A DNA stretch of 64,000 nt from Paracoccaceae bacterium (GTDB taxonomy: Bacteria; Pseudomonadota; Alphaproteobacteria; Rhodobacterales; Rhodobacteraceae). The stretch lies in NCBI GenBank assembly GCA_902554705.1, contig CACDPP010000003.1, positions 1-64,000 on the forward strand, in the 5' to 3' direction. A program made the translations under genes and the position numbers. The notes under the pieces were generated by a model. That model was not told the DNA's origin. It did not search any database and saw only the letters and a list, made by a program, of their open reading frames with translations. Positions 1,716 to 24,416 of the stretch are shown here, in pieces; the first letter of the stretch is position 1, and each line of letters starts with the position of its first letter.

Positions 1716-1906
1716 ACCTTTAAATTGTCGATTTTATTTGATTTAAAGATACTTATAAGAGCGTTAACTTAAAACACTTATAGGCAGTTTCGAAGTGGGG
1801 GCGGGAAGAAAAATATTGGTTTTAAAACTAAATCAATTCGGTTTTTTAATATTTACTCCTTAAAATTTTTATTGAATGTTACCTGGAAAAAACAAAGGCA
1901 ATCATT

Positions 1907-9447: not shown

Positions 9448-10050
9448 TTAAGAACTGGTTTTATCTACTATTTCTACCGAAATCTTGTGCCCTAATTCCT
9501 GCAACCTTGCTTGCAAAAGACTAGCCGTGACGGGATCATTTGAAATAACACCAAGGTAACTATTTCCCGGATGATATCCATCTATAAATCTTAGATCACC
9601 TCTGCGAAGGCCGTTAGCATGTTTTGAACCAAATAGGTCTAAGTCATATAGAAAATTATAAACTCTAGCATTATTACTATCTCTCCTAGCCCAGCATTCA
9701 AAAAAATAATCGTCTTGAACATATTCATCGAGTTCCTTTGGACGAATGCCAAAATTATCGTAAATATCTTTAAACGTACTCAAGGGTATTACTGATCCTT
9801 TTGGAACGCTGAAGCACCCGTAACGATCTAAAGCTTCCCTGTTTGTAAGTTCTGGTACATCAAATTCTGGAGTGTCGAAAAAAAGCTCATATTCGTAGCC
9901 ATTATTTACAAAGAAAATTTCTGAAACCGCTTCATCTGGATTTGCTAAGGGAACAACCGCATTTTTATTTCGCAAATACCAGTTTGCTTTATCTAGATAT
10001 GCAGATGTTAGGATGGAGCCTGCACCAATTAGAAATGAACGTCTATCCAT
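9448..10050 (-). CDS. Exported protein of unknown function with RR-type signal
   Basis: From the ATG at 10050 the protein has 200 residues and begins MDRRSFLIGAGSILTSAYL, an RR-SFL Tat-like signal followed by a short hydrophobic stretch. The mature part (EIFFVNNGYEYELFFDTPEF and on) is not a family I recognise; it has a run of aromatic residues and no metal-binding cluster. The ATG lies inside the end of the upstream 50-residue gene (ATGGATAG overlap), so it is probably translated by coupling. A longer in-frame start at 10170 would put the signal inside the protein and is rejected. Possibly carried with its two small neighbours as a unit. Confidence 0.7.
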   Translation of the reverse strand: MDRRSFLIGAGSILTSAYLDKANWYLRNKNAVVPLANPDEAVSEIFFVNNGYEYELFFDTPEFDVPELTNREALDRYGCFSVPKGSVIPLSTFKDIYDNFGIRPKELDEYVQDDYFFECWARRDSNNARVYNFLYDLDLFGSKHANGLRRGDLRFIDGYHPGNSYLGVISNDPVTASLLQARLQELGHKISVEIVDKTSS

Positions 10051-10195
10051 CAGATTTATCCCCATCATTACTTTCTTGTTCGGAAATATTTTTATCGTCA
10101 TACTTCTGAATTTTTGGATGAGAGGTGAAAGTAAAACTACCTGAATAGATAGGGTCGTCTTTGCCAGCATGATACCATGCTATTATTTTAGCCAT
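10043..10195 (-). CDS. 50-residue protein upstream of the RR-signal protein
   Basis: This short gene reads MAKIIAWYHAGKDDPIYSG..., then a polar, Asp/Glu/Ser-rich end. It has a strong GGAGG nine bases upstream and overlaps the next gene by eight bases, both good signs of real translation. The N-terminal half could form beta strands; the tail is likely disordered. No family recognised. Its leader carries the 20-nt motif at 10206-10225. Confidence 0.65.
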   Translation of the reverse strand: MAKIIAWYHAGKDDPIYSGSFTFTSHPKIQKYDDKNISEQESNDGDKSDG

Positions 10196-10421: not shown

Positions 10422-11051
10422 ATGCGATGGCGGTGGGTTTTTACAATTTTAGCAGTTTTAAGTTGTTTTTCAGGTGTTCCTTTAGCAGTGGCTAAAGACA
10501 AGAGTTTTATCGAAATATTTGAAAAAATTGGGCAGGGTGATTTTGATCGGGGATTAAGGCATGTTTGGAAACATGCAAATGATGGAAATGGAACAGCAAA
10601 CCTGTTATTTTCGAAGGTATATCTTGAATTTGGCGATTTAGATAACTTTGAAAAATATCTCAATATTTCAGCAGATCAGAATAATCCTGTAGCAATGAAA
10701 ATACTCGGTGTTTCCTTTTTGGAGGGAAGCCTTGAAGAACAGAATTTTGATAAGGCTAAATTCTGGTTTGAAGAGTCTGCAAAACACAGAAACATAAATT
10801 CCATGGTTTATTTGGGCATCATGCACCGTGATGGGCTGGGAATTGAAATAGATTTTACTAAATCCTATTTCTGGTTTTCATTAGCTAGTATTTTAAAACC
10901 CAGTGAGGTTGGCGATAAAGAGCCCAAAGAATTCGCTAAGGAAATTGAGAAAGAGCTAACCGATGCCCAAATAATGGAAATCGGGAAAGAAACATATGTC
11001 TGGCTCGATAAGCATCCTGAACTTGAACCGCAGGTTATTCCACCTCTTTAA
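10422..11051 (+). CDS. Secreted Sel1-repeat (TPR-like) protein
   Basis: The 209-residue protein starts with a signal peptide (MRWRWVFTILAVLSCFSGVPLAVA). The mature part holds two or three Sel1-type helical repeats: NPVAMKILGVSFLEGS with KAKFWFEESAKH, then INSMVYLGIMHRDGLG with KSYFWFSLAS. Such repeats mediate protein contacts, usually in the envelope. It heads a plus-strand run of small envelope proteins and lies about 200 bases from the divergent minus-strand locus. No catalytic domain is present. Confidence 0.8.
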   Translation: MRWRWVFTILAVLSCFSGVPLAVAKDKSFIEIFEKIGQGDFDRGLRHVWKHANDGNGTANLLFSKVYLEFGDLDNFEKYLNISADQNNPVAMKILGVSFLEGSLEEQNFDKAKFWFEESAKHRNINSMVYLGIMHRDGLGIEIDFTKSYFWFSLASILKPSEVGDKEPKEFAKEIEKELTDAQIMEIGKETYVWLDKHPELEPQVIPPL

Positions 11052-11094
11052 TTTTTCAAACTTTTGCCAAATGAGCTAGAAGGAGGCTTTGCCA

Positions 11095-11358
11095 ATGATA
11101 AATTCTGAATATGTGAACGCTTTTAATACAATGGGCGAGAGTGGCATTTACTGGATAGATCTGATTTTTAAAATCTGTGTAATTGCTCTGGTAGATTTGG
11201 CTTCCATTCTGGGAATAACTTACGAGGAAATTAATGTCTGGCTATTTGTTATCATCTGGCCGGTACTCACAGTCTATCTAATTATAAGAAATATTTTTTT
11301 GAAGAAAAAACTGAGGAAATTGATATTCAAATCCAACTTATTTCTTACCAAAATGTAA
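11095..11358 (+). CDS. Small membrane protein
   Basis: An 87-residue protein (MINSEYVNAFNTMGESGIYW...) with two membrane helices, roughly IDLIFKICVIALVDLASILG and WLFVIIWPVLTVYLIIRN, then a basic cytoplasmic tail with KKKLRK. The ATG at 11095 follows AGGAGG with 8-base spacing; a TTG at 11089 is too close to that site. Function unknown. It is one of several tiny membrane proteins near the alpha-2-macroglobulin operon. Confidence 0.7.
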   Translation: MINSEYVNAFNTMGESGIYWIDLIFKICVIALVDLASILGITYEEINVWLFVIIWPVLTVYLIIRNIFLKKKLRKLIFKSNLFLTKM

Positions 11359-11442
11359 TTCTGCAAATCTTTTGCACAACACCTCACATATAATCACTAA
11401 ACTTCAATTTTAGCTGCAAATTATAGTGCCATATATCTTTGC

Positions 11443-11542
11443 GACGGAGGCGAAACCGTCGAGTAGCGAGAGGCATGACAATTTCCTCGGTTGTCTCCGC
11501 GCCAGCAGTAATCACTCTCCCCCAGGCGGTGATTGCTGCTGG
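11443..11542 (+). ncRNA. Structured leader with three hairpins
   Basis: Three inverted repeats follow each other: GACGG/CCGTC (11443-11460), GACAA/TTGTC (11477-11495), and a 14-bp stem at 11502-11515 with 11529-11542 holding one G-T pair and a 13-base loop. The last loop begins TCTCC, which is complementary to GGAGA at 11564-11568, the ribosome binding site of the next gene. This may be a translational control element, or a short non-coding RNA. There is no U-run after the last stem, so it is not a standard terminator. Confidence 0.5.
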
Positions 11543-11877: not shown

Positions 11878-12669
11878 ATGATCCTAAACTCTGTTTTTAA
11901 GCTTTTCATTTCTTTCGTCTTTGTAATCTTTGCTGTTACTTGTGGGCTATGGCATATTTGGTGGCTGGCTATACTGCTTATGATTATGCTGGTATCAATC
12001 TGGACTAAGCATGTTCGACTATTGATCACTCTGCTGTTTTTAGGGGTCATAACTCTTCCGATTACCTTTAATAAAATTAGTAATAGAATGGACCATTTAG
12101 GTACGCTTATTAGGTCAGAAGGTCCGCAAGCTCTTAGCACAACCGATAGAGTTGGTATTTATCTAGGTAATATTTCTATGGCAATTGTTGGCTTTGCTAT
12201 TTTTGCTCCAGAAGTGGCTATTGAGACGCTTTTATTAATGGACCCAAGAGGACAAGATCAAACATTTAATTCCTCTTTTGCAATGCGATCGTCTCATATC
12301 TCAAATATTATAGAAACTTACACTTTGGGAGTGCGATCGGGAACCTTACCCAAGCGATCTAATAGAATCCCATTAAAGTGGGATGAAGACAATCGAAAAG
12401 CTTATAGTATGGACGATTATAGAGTAGCCCTCGCGGTTGCTGGTGGAGGGCTATTTCTAAATTATAAGAATGTGGGCAAAGACTATGAAGTCGAATGTCG
12501 AATAACAATAGATGTTAAGTATTCAAACAACTATAAACTTAGTGTGTTCAACGCTTATGGGGTACGCCTCTATGTAGACGAGGCAATTTTTACAGCATTG
12601 CAAGATCTAAATTGGTTTCACCCTTACTATTCACATTACCTTTGGAAGCTTTCGGTTAAGTCAGTTTAA
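11878..12669 (+). CDS. Membrane protein of unknown function
   Basis: 263 residues. The first 65 hold two or three membrane helices (FKLFISFVFVIFAVTCGLWHIW, LAILLMIMLVSIW, LLITLLFLGVITLP); a further hydrophobic segment lies near residues 97-118. The C-terminal half is soluble (about 120-263) and ends near YSHYLWKLSVKSV. No family recognised. The 3' end overlaps the convergent pbpC by nine bases. A DUF or phage-derived origin is possible, but there is no direct sign of one. Confidence 0.7.
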   Translation: MILNSVFKLFISFVFVIFAVTCGLWHIWWLAILLMIMLVSIWTKHVRLLITLLFLGVITLPITFNKISNRMDHLGTLIRSEGPQALSTTDRVGIYLGNISMAIVGFAIFAPEVAIETLLLMDPRGQDQTFNSSFAMRSSHISNIIETYTLGVRSGTLPKRSNRIPLKWDEDNRKAYSMDDYRVALAVAGGGLFLNYKNVGKDYEVECRITIDVKYSNNYKLSVFNAYGVRLYVDEAIFTALQDLNWFHPYYSHYLWKLSVKSV

Positions 12670-14619
12670 GACGGCATTTTGAAAGAAAATTTCATTGGTT
12701 TCTCGGCACTCACCAAGCACTGCCGTGATCTTATTGATGCCCTCATTCTTGAGTATTATTTGATTGTGAATGTCGGATAACTTGGTACTGTTGATATACC
12801 ATTCAGCTTCAGAATTGCCGCTCACAGAAACAGCAAGGTTGGTTCCTCTAATCCATTCTCCATTTTCTGGATATTGGATGAGTTTACTGCATTTTTTAAG
12901 TGGAAATGAGTTTTTTGCCTCAATCTTATAGTCTTGTTTAATCTTTGGCTGTATTAGACCTAAAGCAAGCTTAATATTGTTAGAAATAGGCAAAGCAGCA
13001 CTTCTACCCGTTAAAATTTGAGTATTTTCATTATCAGGTGTTCCTAGCCATACTATTACTAGATGGTTTTCGAATATGTTTGCCACCCAAGCATCCTGCC
13101 TATTGTGGGAGGTCCCCGTCTTAAAAACCTCGACTTTTCCTTTGTGATTTCTTTGGGACATCAGTCTTAAGATCTGCTCAGAGGTATTTGAATTTATAAG
13201 GTGTGAAGATTGTGTTGGGTCATCGTCATAAGTAAACTTCAATTGACTATTAAAGCCTGGATCAGCCATTTCTAAATAGATTTCCGAAAGTTTTTCGGGG
13301 CTTAAATAAAAGCCTCCAACAGCCAGTGATAGTCCTGCGTTTTTGGTCTGCCCAATGTCCTCAGAAATAAATGTCCTCAGTTTATTTTCAAACTGTTCTG
13401 CACCTATCATTTCGAGAGTTTCTATAGCAGATATATTTAGTGATCTATTCAGGGCTTCTTTGAGGGTTACTTTGCCATTATACTTTTTATCAAAGTTTGC
13501 TGGTATGTAGGCCCCCCTTTGAAATTGACTATCGTTAAATATGTGACCTTCATCGATTATTTGTCTCTCTAAAGCATTCGCATAAATTAATGGTTTTAGG
13601 GTTGAGCCTGGGCTTCTCAATGTCCTGAGGTAGTTAATTGCACCTTTTCTTTCTACGTCCATATATGAAGAGGATCCTACATAAGCCTTTACCAGGCCAC
13701 TGCGGCGTTCAACAACGATTGCTGCAAGATTGATTGGTTTTTCGAAGCTTTTTGCCGATGTTCTTAAAATGGAGAGAAGTTCTCGTTGCCAAGAAGGATT
13801 AATCGTTGTTTTAAAACTTGTTTGTGCCTTTGTTTGTAATCTATCAGCTAAATGCGGTGATATTGATTTGGTTTTTGATAGTCTAACGGGTAGGGGTTCT
13901 TTTTTTAATTCTTCAAGTTTTTTGGGGTCTAATCCTATCCTGTCTTTGATAACTTCTAACACTTTTGATTTGGCTTCAAAGGCCGCGTCGGGGAATAGAT
14001 CTGGCCGACGACGTTCCGGTGATTGAGGAAGAGCAACAAGTAAAGCCGCCTCGGTAAATGTTAGTTGGCTTGGAGATTTTTGAAACCAAGCCTCCGTTGC
14101 GGCCTCAATTCCTTCAATATTTCCTCCGTAGGGTGCAAGCGTAAAGTAAGCTTCAAGTATTTCTTCTTTGGACCAATGCGCCTCAAGACGGATTGCCTCT
14201 GCCATTTGGGATAACTTATTCTTGAAAGACCTTTTGCGAAGTTCAGGGTGCATTAACTTTACGGTTTGCATTGTTAATGTAGAAGCGCCTGATTTTATTT
14301 TGCCACTTTTTGCTAAGCTAATTGCTGCTCTCATGACGGCTAGAGGGTCAACGCCATAATGTTGCCAAAATCTTTTATCTTCGTAAGCGATGAGCATTTT
14401 TATTAGCTGAGGATCTATTCGCTCCAATTTGGCAGGTTCGCGCCAGTGACCACTATTTGTGAGCCTCAAATTAATAATTTCTTGTCCATCTCCACGGAGG
14501 ACTTGGGATACATCTGCTAATCTTCCAAGATCAGGTGACCTCCATACAAAAATTAATGCGACCAACATTAAAGTAAGAAATAAACCTGACAGAATAGTGA
14601 AGAATAATTTTCGCATCAT
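12661..14619 (-). CDS. pbpC: Penicillin-binding protein 1C
   Basis: This bifunctional peptidoglycan synthase has 652 residues. An N-terminal membrane helix (about 6-25) is followed by a family 51 glycosyltransferase with EDKRFWQHYGVDP and the KSGASTLTMQ motif, then a transpeptidase with SPGSTLKP (SxxK), SLN in the SxN place, and KTGTS. The last 90 residues fit the PBP1C C-terminal domain. All catalytic signatures are intact. The start overlaps the alpha-2-macroglobulin stop by four bases, so the pair is co-translated, as in E. coli yfhM-pbpC. Together they are thought to guard and repair the envelope when it is breached. Confidence 0.95.
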   Translation of the reverse strand: MMRKLFFTILSGLFLTLMLVALIFVWRSPDLGRLADVSQVLRGDGQEIINLRLTNSGHWREPAKLERIDPQLIKMLIAYEDKRFWQHYGVDPLAVMRAAISLAKSGKIKSGASTLTMQTVKLMHPELRKRSFKNKLSQMAEAIRLEAHWSKEEILEAYFTLAPYGGNIEGIEAATEAWFQKSPSQLTFTEAALLVALPQSPERRRPDLFPDAAFEAKSKVLEVIKDRIGLDPKKLEELKKEPLPVRLSKTKSISPHLADRLQTKAQTSFKTTINPSWQRELLSILRTSAKSFEKPINLAAIVVERRSGLVKAYVGSSSYMDVERKGAINYLRTLRSPGSTLKPLIYANALERQIIDEGHIFNDSQFQRGAYIPANFDKKYNGKVTLKEALNRSLNISAIETLEMIGAEQFENKLRTFISEDIGQTKNAGLSLAVGGFYLSPEKLSEIYLEMADPGFNSQLKFTYDDDPTQSSHLINSNTSEQILRLMSQRNHKGKVEVFKTGTSHNRQDAWVANIFENHLVIVWLGTPDNENTQILTGRSAALPISNNIKLALGLIQPKIKQDYKIEAKNSFPLKKCSKLIQYPENGEWIRGTNLAVSVSGNSEAEWYINSTKLSDIHNQIILKNEGINKITAVLGECRETNEIFFQNAVLN

Positions 14620-17600
14620 TTTTCCAAAACTATCCCTCTAATTGACCCGGAGCGACCATTTTGATCAGGTTCATACATGTGCTCAATGTGTGCACCCCCA
14701 ATGCGCACCTCACCCGCATAAGCAGCACGAACGACATAAGAAATAAGAACACCTTTCCTTCTTGGGAGACCATCCTCGAAATGTGCGATGAAGCGATCGT
14801 CAAGATTGGCTCTGTAGTCAGGATCCAAATTATTCTCTTCATAGATGCCTACTGAATCTAGGTAGGGTTCCGTCAAAGAGGCATCTTCAATTTCAAAACC
14901 TGTTGGAAGAAGATCTGTTAGGAGTAAATCGCCTCCGTTCGAACGTGATGTTTTTTTGGCGTAGATAACAACAGTAAATAATTGTCCTTGCTCAGCATTC
15001 AAATAGGCATTGTCAATAAGCTCACCGTTGGCATCAAACCACCACTTTTCGAGAGAATATCCATTATCAACCATTAAACTACTTTTTGGCGAACCCACTA
15101 GTTCTGCATTTAATGACAGGGATAATTCACTATTATGTTTAAGCTCGAAACCATTGTTTATTTGCTCTTTTGAAAGTGGAAGTACGCCATCCTTACCAAG
15201 TGTTATTTTTTGACCATCAACTTGGATGGCGATATCACTAAGTGTTTCCTTTTCTACAGCATAAAGTGCAACAAGTTTTGCGTTATCTAACGTTGAACGA
15301 AAAGTTTGCTGAGAAAGGTAGTCCTTTGTCAGTTTACGTGTGCTCAATATCTCTGGAGTGAGATATCTTTCAGGAATATCTGCTAAGAGATAACCATATT
15401 TCTGAGAATGAAACCGTGAGCTTTTTGATTTAGACATGTTGATTGATGAGGGGTCAAACCAAAATGAACCCCGTCTTATATTCGTATTTTCGGTTTGGTC
15501 ATATTCGAATACTAAATCGGTGAAAATATTATTTATTTCCCCCATACGTTTGTCGTCGTTAATTGTTGAGGCTGCCCAATAAGATAAAATGAGTTGATCA
15601 TATATTTTGTTATCAATATTTGAAGGTTTTGTTTCCAGAATTCTATCCAACTCATATCGGATGCGGGAAGTCACTTCGTATCCTGATTTTGCTAGTAATC
15701 CATAAGCATAGAGCCTGTCTCCTGTATCTGTGAAATCTGAGCGATAAATATATTCTAGGGATTTGGAAATTGCCTTTAATATCCGTTCTTGATCCTCTGC
15801 ATAGGGAAGTGCCAGTTGAAGTGTCTCAAGGGCATAGGGTTGAAATCGTTCATAAACAGAACTGTATTTCCCCCAGTAGCCAAAAGCCCCACTATTTTTT
15901 TGCTTATTAATTATTCTATTAATGCCAGCATTTATCTTTGTTTTAGTGTCAGGGTAGGCGCCATTGATTTGTGCAAAGGCAATCACTCCTCTGAGACCAG
16001 AGCTTGTTTGTTCAATACATCCGTATGGATAACGATTAAGCGCGCTCACGGCCTGTTTGAGATTAATGCCCACAGACGGCATTAACGATACTTCAACGGT
16101 CGTATCAGCTGCCCCTACATCTATTTCTTTAGCATTTAATCGTGGCAGTTGCGTTTTACTTCTGCCTAACCAGTTTGTTTTTTCAAGGTTAAATGATCTC
16201 AATTCCATTGTCGGATATACTGGAGCACGAGAAACGAGTTCAAATGAACGGAAAATTCTCTGATCTGCATATTTCGCCATTATTTTGATGGGAATTTTCC
16301 CTGAACTTTCGACTTGAAGAGGGATGAGTAGATCCTGGCTAGAGCCTTGAGTAAGGGCAATTGTGTTTTTTAGTTCCAGATCCCCGACGGATCTCACTAA
16401 TTCCAGTTCTCCTTCAAAAGAATTAGAACGAAGTCTAATTTTGCCTGATATCAGGTCGCCAGGTGCTGTGAAGCGCGGAAGTGAGATATCTATACTGACT
16501 GGATCTTGAACAGTAATTTCTTCGGTGGCCATTCCTAAGCCCTGACCGTTAACGATCATTGCGACGGCTCTAAAGCGTCCCTCCATATTTGCCGCATCGA
16601 ACTCAAAGGAAATCTTGCCATCAATAACATCAAGTAGGGGGCTTGCGAGCGCAACGGTATCGAAAAAGTCCGATTTCTCAATATTAGCAAGTTTTGCAGA
16701 GAGTTCGTCACCCCCTCCCATTTTAAAGGCTGGTAGGGATTTGTCTTGCTGAATGAGTTGTCCAAAATTGCTTAGAAAACCGAGTTGTAATTCTCTTTCT
16801 GCAAAAAAGTGATTTTCTATGTCCTGATTTTTGTACTCAGTTACCGCGTGAATACCGTCATCAACCAAAAATATTATGGCTGAACCTTTATTCTGAGAAA
16901 CCGTAAACTCCGTTAATATTTTTTCTGTCGAGCGTAAATTCTGCGGAGAGTTAAATTTAACATCAATGCGCCGATTTTCAGAAAGACTTTCGACCCATGT
17001 TTTGCCAACGGCTATTTGAGGCAGGTGTTCTGTGTTTTCCTGAATTGATCTTGTGAGAGATAAAAGAATATGAGCGCCAGGTTCATTAATACCCTCTGTT
17101 GGGAAGTGCATCTCAGTCGTTCCCTTGGCTACATCAAAAGTTTTGGTTGTAAGAATATCATGGTCAGCTAGGACAACTTTTGTCTTTCCGCTAAAGGGTG
17201 CATTGAATTTGATTGATTGGGTGTTTTTATCATAAAAAACGACCAATTCTTCTGGTTCTGACGCTGGCTTGGTATCTGCCCCCCAACCGACATAGAATTC
17301 AAAATCTGTTTGAAAGCCTTCCTGGTTTTTGATGGTTATTTCGTACCGTCCCCAGTCCAATCCAGACTTGAGGCTGAGGCGTGCTTGTTTCACATCTCCT
17401 GTTTCTACAACTTCGTGGTCAACGCGGATACGACGCCATCTCCAACCGTTATTATAATACCAATTATAGTCATAGATAATGCGTTTAACTTCATAGGAAA
17501 TATTGCTTAACTTTAGCTTTTCTCCAGCTCGATTTATGTTGACGATATCAAATTGTGCTACCGAACCTTGATCTACCCGATTTTCGAAGGCAGGTTGCAA

Positions 17601-19607
17601 ACCAACATAAGTTGTCTCGGTATCAAGTGGAACGGTTAATCTCGTTTTATTAGGCCTTCCACCTACGTCGAATACAGTACCCTCAAGGGAAACATTGAAC
17701 AAATTTCTCGAAAGAAGGTTGAATTTATTATCTATAGTTGCATCCAAAGATCCACTGCTAGAAAGGCTTTGTTGAAGTGGTACGGGATCATAATCGTTAT
17801 CGAACTTAGATTGCCCAAAGATATAGCCCTTTAGCTTGTCTGAGAAATGTTTCCTTTGTGGTTTAAGCTTGAATATTAATTCTGCATCTAATCCAGCAGC
17901 TGGACCACCACTAAAATACTCGGCTTTCAACGTAATATTTTCTGGTTGATCTAATTTCCAGATTTCATTTACGGCTGATAGCTTAGGTTCAATTGTTAAA
18001 GGAACAAAATCCTCAATCGACAACTTATGGGCTGCAAGAATGGTTCCATCTACTTTTTCAACATTGATCGTGTAGTTGCCTAAAGGATAACTCGCTCGTA
18101 AGCCAATATTTGCTGAAAAGACACCAAATTCGTTCGTGTCAATCTGTTGTCTATTGAACTCGTCACCTGATTGGTTTTTCAAAGTAATGGAATAGGTTTC
18201 ATTTGGAATTGGTTTCAGATCTAACTTTCGTGCTGTTCCAAATAAGTTTATTGTATCGGATTGTCGGTATATGTTTCTGTCGGTTGTAAGGTAAACGTCT
18301 TGATCATAGTTTTTCGAAATACCACCCTCTAAGATCCGAGGTTTTTTATTTAGACTTGTGGCGTCTAGGATCGTCGTCCCCTCAATTTCAGATGAAATTA
18401 TGACTATTTCTGGGGCAAATCCCCCAGAACCCTTTAAATATTGATTTGGTATTTTAATGTGGCCATCTGAACTCAAGTCTTTTTGAAAGAGAATTTTATT
18501 ATTTTTTGCGATGACTTTTAGAGAAGCATCGTTAATGGCCTCCAATGTTTCAAATTGTGTAGTGAATACGTCAGTATTTTTGCGCCCACTGAAAACTTGT
18601 GTGGCTATATTTGAAATCATGAACCATTGAGTGGGAATAGGGTCCCAATAGTCGCGATCCAATTCTTCGGATTCAAAAGTAGCGACAAATAATCCAGGTT
18701 GTTCATCACTCAACCATTGATCAAGGTTTAGATTAACCTTCTCCGTTATATTTAATTGGCTTTCTATTTCGATACTCTTTGTTCCTAAATGCTCTCCCCA
18801 AAAGGATTTCAGCCGACGCAATTTGCTTTGATTTAAACTACGAAAAATGTCTGAGTATGAACTCAGAGAATTCAGATCTATTCGATAAAGTGATACATCA
18901 AATTTGCTCACATTTGTTACGCTGATCGGAACAACTGATCCGTATCTATTTGCAAGTATGTTTTTTGATGGATCTGTTTGAATACTTGATTTCATATCCG
19001 CAGTCTTTGCTGCAATTGAGATAGTCGCGGATAAATTTCTTGATGTCGTGCGTTCGCGAGCTTTTAATCCAGGGAGTACAGAAATTTTGTATGGGGTCGA
19101 ATGCTTAAGGCCGGTAATACAGAAATCTGTGCTCTCGCGATAATAACCATCTGAATTTTTTGGTTTTAAAACCGAATAATCAGTTTCAATTTTATTGTTC
19201 CTTTTTACTTGAATGAAGTTATTGATATTGGTTTTCGATAAATCAACAACATCGCCACTTCTTGCAAAGGTCAATGTCGTGCAAACAGATGCGCTTGACC
19301 CAATGTCAAAGGAACGAGGAGGGGAAAGTGAAAAATAATTATCTTCGATAACACGTTCAAAAAGTGCTGCATCGGCAGTATAAATTTGATCATTATACTG
19401 AAAAGTGGCTAAGCGTCCGCTGCTGGCGATGTTCTTTGGAACGTCTATCACTCCAAGGAACTTGACAGTATAACCAGCCGGAATTTTTACTTCATCTGTC
19501 ACCTTAATCACGTCGAGGCTCATAAACTTTCCAGTTTCTGAGGCGATAACTGAATTACAGAAAAAAAGACAAATTATTGCAGATAGAAAAATAAAATATT
19601 TACGCAC
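14616..19607 (-). CDS. Bacterial alpha-2-macroglobulin
   Basis: The 1663-residue product starts at a GTG at 19607 with a G-rich SD eight bases ahead; the TTG further up overlaps that site. A signal peptide (VRKYFIFLSAIICLFFCNSVIA) leads to a long chain of beta-sandwich MG domains. The thioester motif is YPYGCIEQTSSGLRG near residue 1195, followed by the alpha-helical thioester domain (GAFGYWG, ALETLQLALPYAED). The C-terminal part holds a receptor-binding-like domain. Such proteins trap proteases in the periplasm by covalent capture. No clear lipobox is seen, unlike E. coli YfhM. It is the main gene of an operon with three small envelope genes upstream and pbpC downstream. Confidence 0.95.
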   Translation of the reverse strand: MRKYFIFLSAIICLFFCNSVIASETGKFMSLDVIKVTDEVKIPAGYTVKFLGVIDVPKNIASSGRLATFQYNDQIYTADAALFERVIEDNYFSLSPPRSFDIGSSASVCTTLTFARSGDVVDLSKTNINNFIQVKRNNKIETDYSVLKPKNSDGYYRESTDFCITGLKHSTPYKISVLPGLKARERTTSRNLSATISIAAKTADMKSSIQTDPSKNILANRYGSVVPISVTNVSKFDVSLYRIDLNSLSSYSDIFRSLNQSKLRRLKSFWGEHLGTKSIEIESQLNITEKVNLNLDQWLSDEQPGLFVATFESEELDRDYWDPIPTQWFMISNIATQVFSGRKNTDVFTTQFETLEAINDASLKVIAKNNKILFQKDLSSDGHIKIPNQYLKGSGGFAPEIVIISSEIEGTTILDATSLNKKPRILEGGISKNYDQDVYLTTDRNIYRQSDTINLFGTARKLDLKPIPNETYSITLKNQSGDEFNRQQIDTNEFGVFSANIGLRASYPLGNYTINVEKVDGTILAAHKLSIEDFVPLTIEPKLSAVNEIWKLDQPENITLKAEYFSGGPAAGLDAELIFKLKPQRKHFSDKLKGYIFGQSKFDNDYDPVPLQQSLSSSGSLDATIDNKFNLLSRNLFNVSLEGTVFDVGGRPNKTRLTVPLDTETTYVGLQPAFENRVDQGSVAQFDIVNINRAGEKLKLSNISYEVKRIIYDYNWYYNNGWRWRRIRVDHEVVETGDVKQARLSLKSGLDWGRYEITIKNQEGFQTDFEFYVGWGADTKPASEPEELVVFYDKNTQSIKFNAPFSGKTKVVLADHDILTTKTFDVAKGTTEMHFPTEGINEPGAHILLSLTRSIQENTEHLPQIAVGKTWVESLSENRRIDVKFNSPQNLRSTEKILTEFTVSQNKGSAIIFLVDDGIHAVTEYKNQDIENHFFAERELQLGFLSNFGQLIQQDKSLPAFKMGGGDELSAKLANIEKSDFFDTVALASPLLDVIDGKISFEFDAANMEGRFRAVAMIVNGQGLGMATEEITVQDPVSIDISLPRFTAPGDLISGKIRLRSNSFEGELELVRSVGDLELKNTIALTQGSSQDLLIPLQVESSGKIPIKIMAKYADQRIFRSFELVSRAPVYPTMELRSFNLEKTNWLGRSKTQLPRLNAKEIDVGAADTTVEVSLMPSVGINLKQAVSALNRYPYGCIEQTSSGLRGVIAFAQINGAYPDTKTKINAGINRIINKQKNSGAFGYWGKYSSVYERFQPYALETLQLALPYAEDQERILKAISKSLEYIYRSDFTDTGDRLYAYGLLAKSGYEVTSRIRYELDRILETKPSNIDNKIYDQLILSYWAASTINDDKRMGEINNIFTDLVFEYDQTENTNIRRGSFWFDPSSINMSKSKSSRFHSQKYGYLLADIPERYLTPEILSTRKLTKDYLSQQTFRSTLDNAKLVALYAVEKETLSDIAIQVDGQKITLGKDGVLPLSKEQINNGFELKHNSELSLSLNAELVGSPKSSLMVDNGYSLEKWWFDANGELIDNAYLNAEQGQLFTVVIYAKKTSRSNGGDLLLTDLLPTGFEIEDASLTEPYLDSVGIYEENNLDPDYRANLDDRFIAHFEDGLPRRKGVLISYVVRAAYAGEVRIGGAHIEHMYEPDQNGRSGSIRGIVLEK

Positions 19608-19628
19608 AGTGGTATCCCCCAAAGACTA

Positions 19629-19799
19629 TTAAGTTGTTGTACTAAGAGTGCTTATAATTGACTCCAGAGTTGAAATTATTGCAAAGAAAAAAGTTCCAAA
19701 AAGATACTCTAAAATTTGCTCAGTTAATTCCAAAACAAGCATTCCAAGAAATATTGCTAAAAAGCTGTTTATTAAAAATACTGAAAAAAATAGGCGCAT
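19629..19799 (-). CDS. 56-residue membrane protein in the alpha-2-macroglobulin operon
   Basis: A short gene reading MRLFFSVFLINSFLAIFLG..., with two hydrophobic stretches (about 3-25 and 33-47) and a Ser/Thr-rich end. The ATG begins directly after the TAA of the previous gene, and GGGAGG lies six bases ahead. It is 21 bases before the alpha-2-macroglobulin start. These features make it a convincing member of the operon although it is too short for most gene finders. Function unknown; it may help anchor or place the macroglobulin-PBP1C pair. Confidence 0.65.
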   Translation of the reverse strand: MRLFFSVFLINSFLAIFLGMLVLELTEQILEYLFGTFFFAIISTLESIISTLSTTT

Positions 19800-20321
19800 T
19801 TAAACCTCCCCAAATTTTAAATTACAATTTTGCTTTAGCCTTTTAAGGCGCTCAGGCAGGTCAGGCAGCTGCCAACTATTACTTTCAATGTTAGCTTTGC
19901 CATCATCATGCAGAACGGTTAGAGAGCTAATTTTAAGGTCCTTAAATAATTTTTTGGTGTCCCAAGACCAATTCCCAAAACTTAGATAAACTACATCAAA
20001 TTTCTCATCTATCTGATTGGAAATACTGAGCACTTTTGCAATTCGAACAACATTTATATTACCAGAATATAACTTTAAATTTACTATATCATTCGGTGAC
20101 AAAAGGTTGCTTTTTTTATCTACAATTCGCCCCCAAGACCTAATTTCAAAAGAAGAGCAGTCATCTGATGGTAAAATTTCTAGTCGGTCAGCGTACTTGG
20201 CAAGACCATCAAATATAAGCATTTTGGGATTGGTTGATGCCGACAAAGAGGTGCCTTGCAGGGTGGAAAGTCCAAAAATAACTAACTTAAAATAGAGTAT
20301 TATATGTGTTGAATTTACCAT
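19800..20321 (-). CDS. Secreted protein of unknown function in the alpha-2-macroglobulin operon
   Basis: 173 residues with a likely signal peptide (MVNSTHIILYFKLVIFGLSTLQGTSLSA). The mature part is mixed alpha/beta, with FEIRSWGRIVDKKS, FDVVYLSFGNWSWDTKKLF and a basic C terminus with LPERLKRLKQNCNL. Two Cys residues could form a disulphide. No family recognised. It overlaps the upstream 25-residue frame and abuts the 56-residue one, so all are in one transcript with the macroglobulin. Confidence 0.7.
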   Translation of the reverse strand: MVNSTHIILYFKLVIFGLSTLQGTSLSASTNPKMLIFDGLAKYADRLEILPSDDCSSFEIRSWGRIVDKKSNLLSPNDIVNLKLYSGNINVVRIAKVLSISNQIDEKFDVVYLSFGNWSWDTKKLFKDLKISSLTVLHDDGKANIESNSWQLPDLPERLKRLKQNCNLKFGEV

Positions 20322-20392
20322 TTCATGAATACCATGACGAATATGTAAAACAGTAACGTGAGTGCTGGGGCCAACATGGCTAAAATTAACAT
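20315..20392 (-). CDS. 25-residue membrane micro-protein at the head of the operon
   Basis: The frame encodes MLILAMLAPALTLLFYIFVMVFMKW's 25 residues, a single hydrophobic helix ending in Lys-Trp. AAAGGAAGAAG lies just upstream as a strong ribosome binding site, and the stop overlaps the start of the next gene by seven bases. Shape and packing resemble other single-helix micro-proteins that assist membrane complexes. It would be the first product of the alpha-2-macroglobulin operon. Conservation in relatives has not been tested. Confidence 0.55.
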   Translation of the reverse strand: MLILAMLAPALTLLFYIFVMVFMKW

Positions 20393-20411
20393 TTCTTCTT
20401 CCTTTAAATGA

Positions 20412-20448
20412 CCCCCGGTAAGGTGGGAGAACGAAGCCTTACTGGGGG
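20412..20448 (-). other. Stem-loop in the leader of the alpha-2-macroglobulin operon
   Basis: A 12-bp stem (20412-20423 with 20437-20448, one G-T pair) closes a 13-base loop. On the minus strand it lies about 20 bases before the micro-protein start, so it would be in its leader. No U-run follows in either direction, so a plain terminator is unlikely. Confidence 0.5.
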
Positions 20449-20548
20449 GAGCAATCACACCTGCTCTGAGGCTCTTACGACCTGTAAAATAAACTTAGGA
20501 GTAAGGTATGCAGGCTGAATGATGCTTTTATCGAGATCTTATGAAACG

Positions 20549-20578
20549 TTGTGCAGAAGCCGTGCAGATGGTTATAAA
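20549..20578 (+). promoter_or_regulatory. Promoter of the ChvI-like regulator with a direct-repeat operator
   Basis: TTGTGC at 20549 and TATAAA at 20573 are 18 bases apart, a plausible sigma-70-type promoter 54 bases ahead of the regulator ATG. Two copies of GTGCAG start at 20551 and 20562, exactly 11 bases apart, which is the spacing at which OmpR/PhoB-family regulators bind as tandem dimers. Autoregulation is inferred. Confidence 0.4.
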
Positions 20579-20631
20579 TATCTTGCTTGAGAACCTTTTT
20601 TCAGTCACCCAAGTATGTGAACGAGGAAAAA

Positions 20632-21315
20632 ATGACTAAAATTTTAATTGTTGATGATGAAGAAAGTATTCTTGCTCCTTTAGAAGAGATGCTGAGTGGT
20701 GAGGGCTATCGTGTGAGAGCTTTTGATAATCCGGTAAAAGCATTAGAGCTTCTTCGCACACAGGAATTTGATCTCGCTATTTTCGATATTAAGATGCCCG
20801 AAATGAATGGTTATGAGCTTCTAGGTGCTTCTCGAGCCATTCGGCCAGACTTGCCGGTAATTTTTCTCAGCAGTAAACAGGAAGAACAGGATCAGATTAT
20901 TGGGTTTACTTTAGGAGCTGATGACTTTGTTGGTAAACCATTTAGCAAACATCTTCTTCTTTTTCGTATCAAATCGGTATTGAAAAGACATATGCCAAAT
21001 ATTGTCCCAACGCTCAAACCTATTGAGGTAAGCGATTTAGTAATAGATAGGGAGCGACATTTAGTTAAGTGGCGAGACGAGGAAGTATCCCTGACTGTCA
21101 CGGAGTGTATGCTTCTTATAAGTCTTGCTGAACGTCCGGGTGCGGTTAAGAAAAGAGATCAATTAATGGATGCGGCCTATGATGGGTCAGTTCATGTTTC
21201 AGACAGGACTATCGATAGTCATATTCGCAACATAAGAAAGAAATTCAGTGAAGTTGACGAAAAGACTGATCTTATCGGAACCGTTCAGGGGCTTGGGTAT
21301 AAGCTAAAGGTATAA
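20632..21315 (+). CDS. OmpR-family response regulator, ChvI-like
   Basis: 227 residues from the ATG at 20632, which has GAGG ahead. The receiver domain (about 1-115) has the acidic pair DDEE near the N terminus, the phosphoacceptor Asp near residue 52 in LAIFDIKMPEMNG, and the KPFS lysine. A winged-helix DNA-binding domain follows (RTIDSHIRNIRKKF, VQGLGYKL). The wording LAIFDIKMP and GADDFVGKPFS closely resembles alphaproteobacterial ChvI, which governs envelope stress and acid response. The stop overlaps the kinase start by one base. It is divergent from the alpha-2-macroglobulin operon, so it may control it; that is inference. Confidence 0.88.
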   Translation: MTKILIVDDEESILAPLEEMLSGEGYRVRAFDNPVKALELLRTQEFDLAIFDIKMPEMNGYELLGASRAIRPDLPVIFLSSKQEEQDQIIGFTLGADDFVGKPFSKHLLLFRIKSVLKRHMPNIVPTLKPIEVSDLVIDRERHLVKWRDEEVSLTVTECMLLISLAERPGAVKKRDQLMDAAYDGSVHVSDRTIDSHIRNIRKKFSEVDEKTDLIGTVQGLGYKLKV

Positions 21316-22850
21316 TGTTCAGAAGTATCTACTCAAAAATTGCAGGACTTTTGCTCCTTTTTAATGTAGCTCTACTTAGCTTTTTTTTCTTATTTGATGA
21401 TTATATTCCTAATGAGGTTGATCGCCTAAAGAACGAACTTAGTCTTCAGGCTAATTTTTTTGCAAAAATTGTTAAACCCATTCTCCAAATACAAGAGATT
21501 TCACATTTTGAAAAAGCTGTCCGCATAGAGAATGTAATAAATGATCGAAATCTTTTCACCCATGATGAACTCAGAATTTATAGATCTGACCAGAAAGAAA
21601 AATTATCGGGTTATTTCAAATACTTTGACGGAGAAGAGAGAAGACAATTAGAAAAAGTTGAAGTTGCCGAATTACCGGTAAAGAGCAAAAAAAGTGAACC
21701 CGAACCAGATAATTTAGCTTCCAGGTTATTTCGTTTTTATAAACCTCTACTGGATGCTCGTATTTTAACTGAGGAAATCGTAGAAATCAGATCGCGATTT
21801 TTTCCCCAGGTAGAGGTTCTTGATAACGAAGGGGACACCTACACAATTAGATTAGTTGTCCCAATCAGGGAAGAGTCGGCAACCCTTGGAATTGTAGAAA
21901 TTTGGAAAAATTTTTCGATCAAAGAAGCATATATTGGAAGAAATAATACGCGTCTTACTTTCTTAGCAGGGATGAGCAGTTTGACGCTGATATTTGGGAT
22001 AATGCTTGCTCTTTCTATCGCGCTCCCAATCAGGCGGCTTTCAAAACGTCTTGATAGAAATCTCACTCCTGATGATGTCACTACGCAACTAAAGAGTTTT
22101 ACAGATAGAAAGCTGAGTGCCAGAAAAGATGAAGTTGGATTGCTTTATAAAAATCTCATCAAACTAACCTCTCAGGTGTCCTTGTTATTCGAGGAAAAAG
22201 AGCGTTTTGCCTCCGAAGTTTCTCATGAATTAAAAAATCCAATTGCGAGTATCATTGCTCAGACGGAAAATTATGCTGCTAGAGATGATGATGACGCTCT
22301 GGCTATTGATAAAATTAAAGAGCAGGCTGTTCGGATGAATAAGCTAATTAGTGAAATTTCTGAAGCTGCAGTTGTTGATAATGATTTAGTAACAAAGGCT
22401 CGTGAGAAGTTTGATTTATCGACAACCGTAAATGAAATTTTAGATCACTACATTGACAGTAATGAACATCCTGATCTGCAACTGAGTTCTGAAATACAAA
22501 AAAACATTGTATTTTTAGGTTTGCCAGATCGAATTGGTCAGGTTTTGGTGAATGTATTAGACAACGCTATTTCTTTCTCTAAACCAAAAGGAAACATAAA
22601 AGTCGAACTCCATAAAAGATGGAGAAGAAAACCTATATTGATTGTTGAAGATAGTGGTCCTGGAGTTAGTGAGGGATCCAGGGAATTAATTTTTGAAAGA
22701 TTTTATACTTCTCGGAGTGGTGGTGCTGAAATCAAGAATTCTTCGGGCCTTGGGCTATTTATTTGTAAACAAATAATAGAAGCCCACGGTGGAAGAATTT
22801 CTGTGGGTGGTTCTTCTTTAGGAGGCGCGCGATTTGAGGTGAACTTCTAG
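21315..22850 (+). CDS. Sensor histidine kinase, ChvG-like
   Basis: 511 residues. A first membrane helix (about 9-27), a periplasmic sensor domain of about 190 residues, a second helix (about 218-240), then HAMP. The H box is SEVSHELKNPIAS with phosphoacceptor His near 304. The HATPase domain has VLDNAISFS (N box), VEDSGPGVS (G1) and SSGLGLFICKQI (G2). All catalytic parts are intact. It should sense the periplasm and phosphorylate the regulator just upstream. The kinase is somewhat shorter than typical ChvG. Confidence 0.9.
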   Translation: MFRSIYSKIAGLLLLFNVALLSFFFLFDDYIPNEVDRLKNELSLQANFFAKIVKPILQIQEISHFEKAVRIENVINDRNLFTHDELRIYRSDQKEKLSGYFKYFDGEERRQLEKVEVAELPVKSKKSEPEPDNLASRLFRFYKPLLDARILTEEIVEIRSRFFPQVEVLDNEGDTYTIRLVVPIREESATLGIVEIWKNFSIKEAYIGRNNTRLTFLAGMSSLTLIFGIMLALSIALPIRRLSKRLDRNLTPDDVTTQLKSFTDRKLSARKDEVGLLYKNLIKLTSQVSLLFEEKERFASEVSHELKNPIASIIAQTENYAARDDDDALAIDKIKEQAVRMNKLISEISEAAVVDNDLVTKAREKFDLSTTVNEILDHYIDSNEHPDLQLSSEIQKNIVFLGLPDRIGQVLVNVLDNAISFSKPKGNIKVELHKRWRRKPILIVEDSGPGVSEGSRELIFERFYTSRSGGAEIKNSSGLGLFICKQIIEAHGGRISVGGSSLGGARFEVNF

Positions 22851-22931: not shown

Positions 22932-24416
22932 TTATTGCTTCACCATGTTTTCTAACTCGCGATGAATTTCAACCATAGCCCAAGTATCGCGCTTACAATA
23001 ATCGATTAGGTCTGAATAAACTTTATTACTATTACTATTGTTAGGCTTTTCTATCGTAACTTCTTTCCAAAGGCGGGAAGCCGCATCTCCCTTTTGAATA
23101 TCTAAGTCACTATAAGACAGTTCTGGTTTAAAAACAGGGAGTACATCTTTAATTGAAGCACTCCCTTTAAACCCGGGATCAGCTACTGTCTCGTCCGCAA
23201 AAGGTTCTTTCAAGTCTATCATACGCAGGTTCATATTATTTAGAAATGATGCATAATCTGGGTACATCTCTGCCATGGCTTCGTTTTGTTGAATTTCAAA
23301 AGATGCATGCCAAGATAAAATAGTTCCGTCATCTCCTACATCTCTCCGGAGCGACTCAAGAAGTTTTGGCATTGGGTTTTCTGTATTGCGATGTAGATAT
23401 TCCTTATGTTCAATTTCTGATCCATGTTCTCTTTGAATATGCAAGGAATATTGAAAGGGGACTTGTTGGTAGGGTTTAGTTCCATCCCAGATAGGAAGTA
23501 ATCCCCCTGATGTTTCATAATCAAAATAATACACAGGAAATCTGATTTTATTGAGAAATAGGTTCAGCGCTGTTTTGTCGACGGTTCGTGTTCCGTGGTC
23601 CACGGCTCTTAAATATTTTTGGGTATTTTTGTTAAAGAAAGAGCGATCAGTAATTTCATCGATAAATTTAATATTATTTTCTGAAAGCTTAGTTGCTATT
23701 TTAGCGTTCATAGATGGAAGAAAGTGTATACTGTTTTCGGGTAGTGGTGGGTCTAATTGTAACCTGATCTCCATCCAATCTTGATAAGCACCCAACCGCG
23801 TCAATTCTGGTGCTGTGTCAGGAATATTTGGGCTGTTTGCGATATCCAAAGCTTGTTTGATCCGAACCTTAGTGCTTTCTAATTTTTTTTGAACATCTTC
23901 AGTAACATCCGTGAAAGCCACTAAGCCTTTTGAGTCAATTTCACCCTGACGAACATATGAAGAGTTTACGTGTCCAATCTCACATTTTTTGATGGGGAAT
24001 CCACAAGCTTCGAGTACGATTCTTTGGAACGCTAAATCAAAAATATGCTCATCTTTCTTACGGGTACTGCTTTTTATTTCAGTTAAAATATACTCGCTAC
24101 CGTCTTTTCTAACCACATCAGAAATACAGGTTATTGATCCACTTTCGTAGCGTCCTTGTGCGACTACTGTGGCGCCATTATCCCAAGCCTGTTGAGTTTC
24201 ATAAGGTAAATCTAGGTAACTTTGAAAATCACTGAAACCCAAACGAATAAGATCGGGGAAAAGAGCCTCCGCATAGGGTTCGAATTGGTTACCTTCATCG
24301 AAACGCGCTTGCAGTTCAGGACTTACTGGTGGGATCAGGTCCTTTGCATGTTTTTTTACCCACAACCAAGCAGGGTGTTTTAAAAACATCATATATTCAG
24401 ATTTAGACATGATCAT
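22932..24416 (-). CDS. DUF2779 protein, nuclease-like
   Basis: 494 residues. The N-terminal half has a PD-(D/E)XK-like core: ITCISDVVRKDGSEYILTEIKSS supplies D, E and K in the right order. The middle matches DUF2779, with YYFDYETSGG and its D-x-E, as in RNase H-like exonucleases, and later LSWHASFEIQQNEAMA. The C terminus has DLIDYCKRDTWAMVEIH, a further conserved Asp. The two parts resemble proteins that process DNA or RNA, but no substrate is known. It stands alone, convergent with the ChvG-like kinase. Motif reading is by eye. Confidence 0.8.
   Translation of the reverse strand: MIMSKSEYMMFLKHPAWLWVKKHAKDLIPPVSPELQARFDEGNQFEPYAEALFPDLIRLGFSDFQSYLDLPYETQQAWDNGATVVAQGRYESGSITCISDVVRKDGSEYILTEIKSSTRKKDEHIFDLAFQRIVLEACGFPIKKCEIGHVNSSYVRQGEIDSKGLVAFTDVTEDVQKKLESTKVRIKQALDIANSPNIPDTAPELTRLGAYQDWMEIRLQLDPPLPENSIHFLPSMNAKIATKLSENNIKFIDEITDRSFFNKNTQKYLRAVDHGTRTVDKTALNLFLNKIRFPVYYFDYETSGGLLPIWDGTKPYQQVPFQYSLHIQREHGSEIEHKEYLHRNTENPMPKLLESLRRDVGDDGTILSWHASFEIQQNEAMAEMYPDYASFLNNMNLRMIDLKEPFADETVADPGFKGSASIKDVLPVFKPELSYSDLDIQKGDAASRLWKEVTIEKPNNSNSNKVYSDLIDYCKRDTWAMVEIHRELENMVKQ

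What the first reader, a model, noticed from the sequence alone, without database searches (positions are those of the whole stretch)
12661..20392. Alpha-2-macroglobulin/PBP1C operon with three unannotated small envelope genes
Upstream of the macroglobulin and on the same strand are a 25-residue helix, a secreted 173-residue protein and a 56-residue membrane protein, each starting within overlap or direct contact of the one before. The macroglobulin-PBP1C pair is known; the three small partners are not, as far as I can tell. They could anchor, place or sense for the trap.
Basis: partly seen in the sequence, partly recalled or inferred. Interest (0 to 1): 0.6.

Follow-up and report, generated by a model that had tools for sequence, protein, structure and literature searches.

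The report
Kinase-linked micropeptide heads protease-trap operon
In some bacteria of the Planktomarina family, a protease-trap and cell-wall-repair operon begins with a conserved tiny membrane peptide and a secreted protein, and is probably switched on by the sensor-kinase pair encoded beside it, forming what looks like a new kind of envelope-alarm unit.

Summary
In detail: a 25-codon, a 173-codon and a 56-codon frame run head to tail into a thioester alpha-2-macroglobulin (A2M) and PBP1C. The locus is accessory (no A2M match in 15 of 15 other genomes of the genus), yet the arrangement recurs in two other genera. Two of the three small genes look real: the secreted protein is a family of its own with an IalB-like predicted fold, and the 25-residue membrane peptide sits at 10 of 11 loci of one particular two-component system (TCS), including loci with no A2M. 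So the peptide belongs to the TCS rather than to the trap. A tandem 11-bp repeat (TGCAC-N6-TGCA) and a leader RNA with a C-rich hairpin loop precede it. On one single-contig chromosome the operon keeps a variant repeat and the leader although the TCS lies 1.3 Mb away. Best reading: a ChvG/CreBC-like TCS drives the operon, the peptide modulates the kinase, the secreted protein works with kinase or trap, and A2M and PBP1C are the effectors. The regulatory link rests on anatomy; the peptide's action on the kinase is inference. The 56-residue gene is at best position-conserved.

The parts
21315..22850 (+). sensor histidine kinase, two membrane helices and a PAS-like periplasmic domain (predicted), ChvG-related
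   Evidence: Pfam HisKA/HATPase_c; best NCBIfam ChvG 185.5 bits, below cut-off 740; 41-51% identical to six kinases of the other TCS loci; tree; sensor model resembles the WalK receptor domain
20632..21315 (+). response regulator, OmpR type (listed ORF starts at TTG 20587; ATG 20632 more likely)
   Evidence: Pfam Response_reg + Trans_reg_C; best NCBIfam CreB 190.2 bits, below cut-off 273
20552..20566 (-). tandem repeat TGCAC-N6-TGCA, 11-bp period, likely response-regulator site; a further CTGCA lies near 20512
   Evidence: only match in the 64-kb window, 0.28 expected, at least one in 24 of 100 shuffles; exact at 10 of 11 TCS loci; 0 in the 39 canonical A2M loci held
20412..20485 (-). leader RNA: hairpins 20449-20466 and 20412-20448, the latter GC-rich with UCUCCC in its loop; a first one about 20469-20483 forms only in the shorter fold, not in the 130-nt fold
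   Evidence: folds: 10 of 12 leaders have a 7-bp or longer hairpin with UCCC in its terminal loop, shuffle rates 0.003-0.08
20315..20392 (-). 25-aa membrane micropeptide MLILAMLAPALTLLFYIFVMVFMKW
   Evidence: counterparts at 10 of 11 TCS loci; blind detection 0 of 500 shuffles for the window; substitution test favours coding in 4 of 5 pairs of other loci, the window's own peptide not being in any pair
19800..20321 (-). 173-aa secreted protein (signal-like N-terminus by eye), beta-rich IalB-like predicted fold, Cys55 and Cys166 invariant in 5 of 5 rows
   Evidence: homologues in L097, L098, L104 and fused to Sel1 repeats in L105; model; 3dtd_B Z 9.8, rmsd 3.3, 122 aligned
19629..19799 (-). 56-aa hydrophobic frame, possible membrane protein
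   Evidence: position-matched 47-aa frames in L098 and L104, none seen in L097; no sequence similarity between the window's and L098's
14616..19607 (-). Type I alpha-2-macroglobulin, CIEQ thioester motif, signal-like N-terminus without lipobox
12661..14619 (-). penicillin-binding protein 1C
   Evidence: TIGR02073 513.3 bits, cut-off 494.2
11878..12669 (+). 263-aa membrane protein, convergent, overlaps the PBP1C end by 9 bp; a relative lies near the TCS in G700; membership of the module uncertain
   Evidence: L104:8624-9418 is alike by eye; no Pfam family for the window protein up to E=1

Best explanation
This is a self-contained, accessory envelope-defence module. A ChvG/CreBC-like two-component system senses periplasmic or cell-wall damage; its regulator binds TGCAC-N6-TGCAC and drives a transcript made of a C-rich-loop hairpin leader, a 25-residue membrane peptide, a secreted IalB-like protein, sometimes a second small membrane protein, then the A2M protease trap and PBP1C. 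The micropeptide is a component of the TCS: encoded at its promoter and lying in the same membrane, it most likely binds the kinase and tunes its output (MgrB-PhoQ logic). The secreted protein acts in the periplasm with kinase or trap; A2M traps invading or stray proteases and PBP1C mends the wall. Shown by sequence: gene order, recurrence of peptide, secreted protein, repeat and leader, co-occurrence with the TCS. Inferred: direction of regulation, peptide-kinase contact, the signal, the trap's targets.
For: Divergent regulator - repeat - hairpin leader - peptide - secreted protein - A2M in G596, G700 and G606, with PBP1C following in G596 and G606; in G700 the contig ends inside the A2M, and in G596 the kinase is on another contig, at whose end it breaks off. 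In a draw of 394 family genomes from 393 genera, this A2M subtype is in 4 (E<=1e-200) and the kinase subtype in 7 (E<=1e-70), and all 4 are among the 7; picking 4 of 394 inside 7 by chance is about 3.5e-8 (my arithmetic; genomes are not independent, and some of the hits seeded the profiles). In G474 the operon has a variant repeat (TGCAT-N6-TGCA) and the leader although its TCS is at 2.69 Mb and the operon at 1.35 Mb. Repeat exact at 10 of 11 TCS loci, 0 in 39 canonical A2M loci of 259,272 bases. Peptide at 10 of 11 TCS loci; coding test P 0.21, 0.010, 0.0018, 0.0002, 0.0002 (pairs not independent). Kinase tree: the 10 TCS rows one group (90/95), beside ChvG-like kinases (89/92), and the four A2M-linked ones together (89/99). 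The cre/blr tag TTCACN6TTCAC (PMC4689548, one passage) has the same 11-bp design. ChvG-ChvI answers cell-wall stress (PMC9731437, passages). MgrB is a 47-aa membrane peptide that represses PhoQ/PhoP (PMC2789325, abstract and outline).
Against: No experiment; no footprint or expression data. Two Planktomarina-group genomes with the A2M (G428, G439) gave no kinase of this kind, perhaps only because they are fragmented. G447/G474 has A2M and PBP1C without peptide or secreted protein before them, and no secreted-protein hit anywhere. L114 (G537) has the kinase but no peptide and no 11-bp repeat. The window's own leader is not clearly more stable than shuffles (z -1.21) and pairwise covariation is inconclusive. 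Kinase and regulator miss the ChvG and CreB cut-offs. The window and G606 peptides resemble the others least, and the window's was not in the substitution test. The tree drops 6 of 18 other-kinase loci that lack the searched motif and leaves L120 out as a near-copy, and the program warns of long branches.
Confidence: 0.55

Rival explanations
1. The small proteins are structural partners of the trap: the micropeptide and the 56-aa protein hold the A2M, which has no lipobox, at the inner membrane beside PBP1C, and the secreted protein helps to load or place it.
For: Same presumed transcript; no lipobox in the A2M; in the Pseudomonas mag operon the membrane-helix protein MagB binds and stabilises the Type II A2M MagD (PMC5764988, passages); 47-56-aa hydrophobic frames directly before the A2M in 3 of the 4 loci that have both the secreted protein and the A2M.
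Against: The 25-aa peptide is at TCS loci without A2M and the secreted domain occurs without A2M in G663. The third frame shows little or no sequence conservation.
Confidence: 0.2
2. The 25-codon frame is a leader peptide or translational-coupling device: only its translation matters, opening the leader or loading ribosomes for the secreted protein.
For: It follows a hairpin leader and overlaps the next start codon, as in classical leaders.
Against: In G447/G474 and G657 neither the secreted protein nor A2M follows in the stretch read, and none is seen in the roughly 450 nt read behind the peptide in G440, G429 and G430, yet the hydrophobic peptide stays; amino acids are conserved over synonymous change in those loci.
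Confidence: 0.12
3. The main product is the leader: a TCS-controlled small RNA of the C-rich-loop (CcsR or cuckoo-like) kind, and the genes behind it are passengers of the promoter.
For: UCCC-bearing hairpin loops in 10 of 12 leaders (several are close relatives); in L114 hairpins without a peptide gene; CcsR RNAs co-transcribed with a small protein gene are known in Rhodobacter (PMC10253847, passages).
Against: No Rfam family at gathering score in L097, L098, L083; in the window region only two sub-threshold matches; weak or no covariation; the peptide is conserved on its own.
Confidence: 0.13

Closest known systems
Type I bacterial A2M with pbpC (E. coli ECAM)
   Same: CxEQ thioester motif, macroglobulin domains, PBP1C next door (PMC3328433 passages)
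   Different: 41-44% identical to the three relatives aligned, but only 23-28% over the matches listed for the common copies of the order; preceded by TCS, repeat, leader and small genes
Type II A2M mag operon (MagABCDEF)
   Same: A2M with several small envelope partners, one with a membrane helix (PMC5764988 passages)
   Different: mag A2M lacks CxEQ and is not paired with PBP1C; partners of 26-60 kDa rather than about 3-20 kDa; no direct comparison of the small proteins with Mag proteins was run
PhoQ/PhoP-MgrB
   Same: small membrane peptide made under control of the TCS (PMC2789325 abstract)
   Different: 25 aa against 47, encoded at the TCS locus; no library match to any family; effect on the kinase untested
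ChvG-ChvI with ExoR, and CreBC
   Same: kinase nearest ChvG, regulator nearest CreB; cre-tag-like tandem site; a Sel1-repeat secreted partner at one locus (L105), as I recall ExoR to be
   Different: below family cut-offs; outside the ChvG-like kinases of relatives in the tree; PMC9731437 (passages) says ExoR is characteristic of Rhizobiales and wall stress acts without it
IalB family (Bartonella 3dtd)
   Same: predicted fold of the secreted protein (Z 9.8, 122 residues)
   Different: no Pfam match; about 10% identity; hhalign against one sub-threshold IalB-like protein (L115) only 1.7% probability
CcsR / cuckoo RNAs of Rhodobacteraceae
   Same: hairpins with C-rich loops (recalled for CcsR), linked to a small protein gene
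   Different: precede rather than follow the small gene; no DUF1127 protein; the exact CCUCCUCCC motif (recalled) is not in the leaders printed

Membership tests
Type I bacterial A2M | CxEQ thioester motif | tested here: met
   CIEQ 1202-1205; C, E and Q invariant in 4 of 4 aligned
Type I bacterial A2M | gene next to pbpC | tested here: met
   TIGR02073 above cut-off; 4-nt overlap
Type I bacterial A2M | protease trapping through the thioester | not testable with these tools
   needs purified protein
Type II A2M mag operon | thioester motif lacking, not paired with pbpC | tested here: not met
   CIEQ and PBP1C both present
ChvG | NCBIfam NF058527 cut-off | tested here: not met
   185.5 of 740 bits, though best family
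CreB | NCBIfam NF008296 cut-off | tested here: not met
   190.2 of 273 bits, best family
CreB regulon | TTCACN6TTCAC site | tested here: not met
   TGCAC-N6-TGCAC instead; same spacing
ExoR | Sel1-repeat periplasmic inhibitor of ChvG (repeats recalled) | tested here: not met
   window protein has no Sel1 match; its relative in L105 does
IalB | Pfam PF06776 match | tested here: not met
   no Pfam family for P0002 up to E=1
IalB | IalB fold | tested here: inconclusive
   3dtd_B Z 9.8, rmsd 3.3, 122 aligned, next entry 6.2; third by Foldseek E-value, none at or below 0.001; model pLDDT 74 from 5 rows
MgrB-like kinase modulators | single-helix membrane peptide encoded in the TCS regulon | tested here: inconclusive
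   hydrophobic stretch and position at the TCS promoter; regulation not measured
MgrB-like kinase modulators | binds and inhibits the kinase | not testable with these tools
   needs two-hybrid or reporter assays
CcsR/cuckoo RNA | match to a curated Rfam family | tested here: not met
   0 gathering matches in L097, L098, L083; window 19500-21000 only sub-threshold hits to unrelated families; whether Rfam holds a CcsR family was not checked

The most novel reading that the evidence does not exclude
A new class of TCS with a dedicated 25-residue membrane peptide as third component, whose signal is proteolytic or cell-wall attack on the periplasm. The IalB-like protein (Sel1-fused and so ExoR-like at one locus) would be the sacrificial periplasmic brake: attacking proteases cut it, the kinase fires, and the same transcript restocks brake and peptide and delivers the protease trap and the wall-repair enzyme, with the C-rich leader acting as a small RNA on other envelope genes.
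Probability: 0.2. Interest if true: 0.8.

Novelty: new variant of a known kind. Interest (0 to 1): 0.6.

Why it matters
To my knowledge little is known of what calls bacterial A2M traps into action. This locus ties one to a particular regulator, a DNA site and a micropeptide, so the question can be tested by deleting single genes. It also points to a family of 25-residue membrane peptides, short enough to be missed by gene finders, defined by synteny and by substitution pattern.

Tried and rejected
Misbinned contig: rejected; RmuC at 6686-8080 has 71-77% identical copies in 5 of the 15 other genomes of the genus. In the seven stretches fetched around those copies only RmuC matches at high identity; the rest are weak paralogue hits, so the neighbourhood is accessory DNA.

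Small genes before ordinary A2M genes: the secreted-protein profile hits 4 of 394 family genomes at E<=0.01, while A2M at E<=1e-60 is in 216 of 390 genomes of the order draw; the repeat is in 0 of the 39 canonical loci held (about 1 kb of upstream DNA each). I did not read those loci one by one for other small frames.

Viral and plasmid collections: no relative of A2M or secreted protein found in viral contigs. Plasmids: 265 records with an A2M, all under 60% identity, the 20 listed 22.6-23.3%; secreted protein 5 records, best E 1.

Lipobox as a difference from ordinary copies: dropped, since a crude test finds one in only 1 of 39 canonical copies; that script also mis-set the starts of L097 and L104, which I do not use.

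Covariation as proof of the leader structure: not claimed. L119/L120: 6 one-sided consistent changes, 2 broken; L117/L118: 3 broken, none consistent; the five wider pairs have 11-17 broken pairs and probably misalign. Conservation of the third small gene: ungapped substitution test P 0.24; gapped BLASTP of the two 47-aa frames 9 of 44 identical, E 2e-4 for that one comparison; window versus L098 nothing.

IalB by profile: hhalign 1.7%, only 24 C-terminal columns. Profile search of PDB sequences gave 9 chance-like hits, best E 0.018. A second copy of the repeat beyond the window (L085:909-923) appears, by eye, to lie at the end of a coding frame.
Full report
What is there. On the minus strand five frames run head to tail: a 25-residue hydrophobic peptide, a 173-residue secreted protein, a 56-residue hydrophobic protein, a Type I A2M and PBP1C. 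The first frame overlaps the second by 7 nt, the third starts on the next base, the A2M follows after 21 nt (or 6 nt with the TTG start), and A2M and PBP1C overlap by 4 nt.

Where it occurs. The contig belongs to its genus (RmuC), but 0 of 15 other genomes of that genus have an A2M match. The common A2M of the order is only 23-28% identical over the matches listed. A contig titled Planktomarina sp. gave 44%, and its genus 3 of 20 genomes, one on a single-contig 3,288,122-bp chromosome (G447, the same as G474); from memory that length fits P. temperata RCA23, and from memory the family is Rhodobacteraceae. With a profile, 4 of 394 family genomes have the subtype, plus a sister of one of them (G700, 2 of 7 in that genus with G596).

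Small genes elsewhere. G596 (L098) and G700 (L104) have divergent regulator, hairpin leader, 25-aa peptide (MPVIAIPTAVIMFFFFFAVYIYLWG; MPMIALPTIVILGCFYLAVCIYLWA), secreted protein, 47-aa membrane frame and A2M; G606 (L097) has all but the third. PBP1C follows in L098 and L097; L104 is cut off inside the A2M by the contig end; the G596 kinase is on another contig. The secreted proteins are 17-35% identical to the window's, with Cys55 and Cys166 invariant. G663 (L105) has the TCS, leader, peptide and the secreted domain fused to Sel1 repeats, with no A2M gene in the 16 kb read. In G447/G474 the operon (L083) has leader and a variant repeat but an unrelated frame of about 89 aa in place of the small genes. 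In G439 (L084) only 115 bp before the A2M are held and show no small frame; L079, the first relative, holds no upstream DNA.

The peptide follows the kinase. A kinase profile finds 7 of 394 family genomes and, of 41 further chosen genomes, 5 at E<1e-200 (G700, G447, G440, G429, G430), of which G447 is G474 again; 5 weaker hits at 1e-63 to 1e-68 I read as ChvG. The 15 other genomes of the window's genus have none. Of the 11 distinct genomes with this kinase, 10 have a 23-28-residue hydrophobic peptide at the divergent promoter; G537 has none. Those without an A2M beside them are alike (MGILQILTATEILVFCSIFCIYLFR, MEFLQVFTVTEILIFCSVFCIYLFR, MEFVRTLTIAEILVFGAFLYVYLLRKSK, MATLQIFTAGEILFFIAAAGLYIWGSK). 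Substitution tests favour coding in 4 of 5 pairs, the window not among them, and blind detection finds 6 of 8, the window among them. The G606 start (GTG) is my choice.

Promoter and leader. TGCAC-N6-TGCA occurs once in the window, at 20552-20566 (0.28 expected), exactly at 10 of 11 TCS loci and in 0 of 39 canonical A2M loci; L083 has the TGCAT variant. Ten of 12 leaders have a hairpin with UCCC in the terminal loop (L112 and L120 fail). Energies against shuffles, for the six folded with that control, are z -1.21 (window), -1.00, -4.28, -2.30, -2.06, -2.27: modest. Covariation is inconclusive and no Rfam family reaches its gathering score in three loci.

Structures. The secreted protein's model (pLDDT 74, pTM 0.67, 5 rows) has IalB 3dtd as its highest-probability Foldseek match (up to 0.99) but only third by E-value, at 0.016-0.07, with none at or below 0.001; VIA gives Z 9.8, rmsd 3.3, 122 aligned, next entry 6.2. 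No sequence method confirms it. The kinase sensor (pLDDT 77.5, pTM 0.64) resembles PAS-like domains, the S. aureus WalK receptor first (E about 1e-3, TM 0.37-0.59).

Mechanism and certainty. Shown: order, recurrence, co-occurrence. Strongly suggested: the TCS controls the operon through the repeat, since in G474 the two are 1.3 Mb apart and a variant repeat and the leader remain at the operon. Inferred: the peptide tunes the kinase, by its near-constant link to it and by analogy with MgrB; the secreted protein is a periplasmic partner, by signal-like N-terminus, fold and the Sel1 fusion; the stimulus is wall or protease attack, by the effectors and the nearest regulators. Against: G428 and G439 have the A2M with no such kinase found; the window peptide lacks the T-x-x-EIL pattern of the peptides without A2M; and the ExoR parallel is weakened by PMC9731437 (passages), where wall stress acts on ChvG-ChvI without ExoR.

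Print. Searches for bacterial A2M with PBP1C (20 of 27 listed), A2M with Rhodobacteraceae (2 of 2), A2M with TCS, operon and PBP1c (12 of 15) and Planktomarina with macroglobulin (none) listed no paper whose title or abstract start describes this; only the open-licence part of PMC is held.

Noticed in passing
window 60-6646: Defence-island-like run: helicase C-terminal part close to BrxH/DrmD, PDC-M33A-like protein, C5 cytosine methylase close to DruM2/MTase_II.
   Followed up: partly
window 22932-24416: DUF2779 protein with weak Cas4-like similarity, convergent with the kinase gene and 82 bp from it.
   Followed up: no
window 9448-10170 and L104:9749-10336, 10905-11513: Family of proteins containing M[DN]RRSFL.G.G.ILT....[DE]KANW[YF]LRNKNAVVPL, two copies in G700 near the same TCS; for the two tested no Pfam family passes its cut-off.
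   Followed up: partly
L115:7903-8475: A distinct secreted protein with a sub-threshold IalB match (E 0.14) convergent to the kinase gene in G596.
   Followed up: partly
L098:8800-10188, L083:1173-2576, L097:3488-4867: An exonuclease-I-like gene (my reading of the protein sequence) lies beside PBP1C or on the TCS side in three genera, suggesting a shared island.
   Followed up: no
L114:6950-7510: TCS locus of G537 with C-rich-loop hairpins but no peptide gene; perhaps a small RNA only.
   Followed up: partly
L105:6176-6190: Second copy of the tandem repeat in G663, away from the TCS promoter.
   Followed up: no
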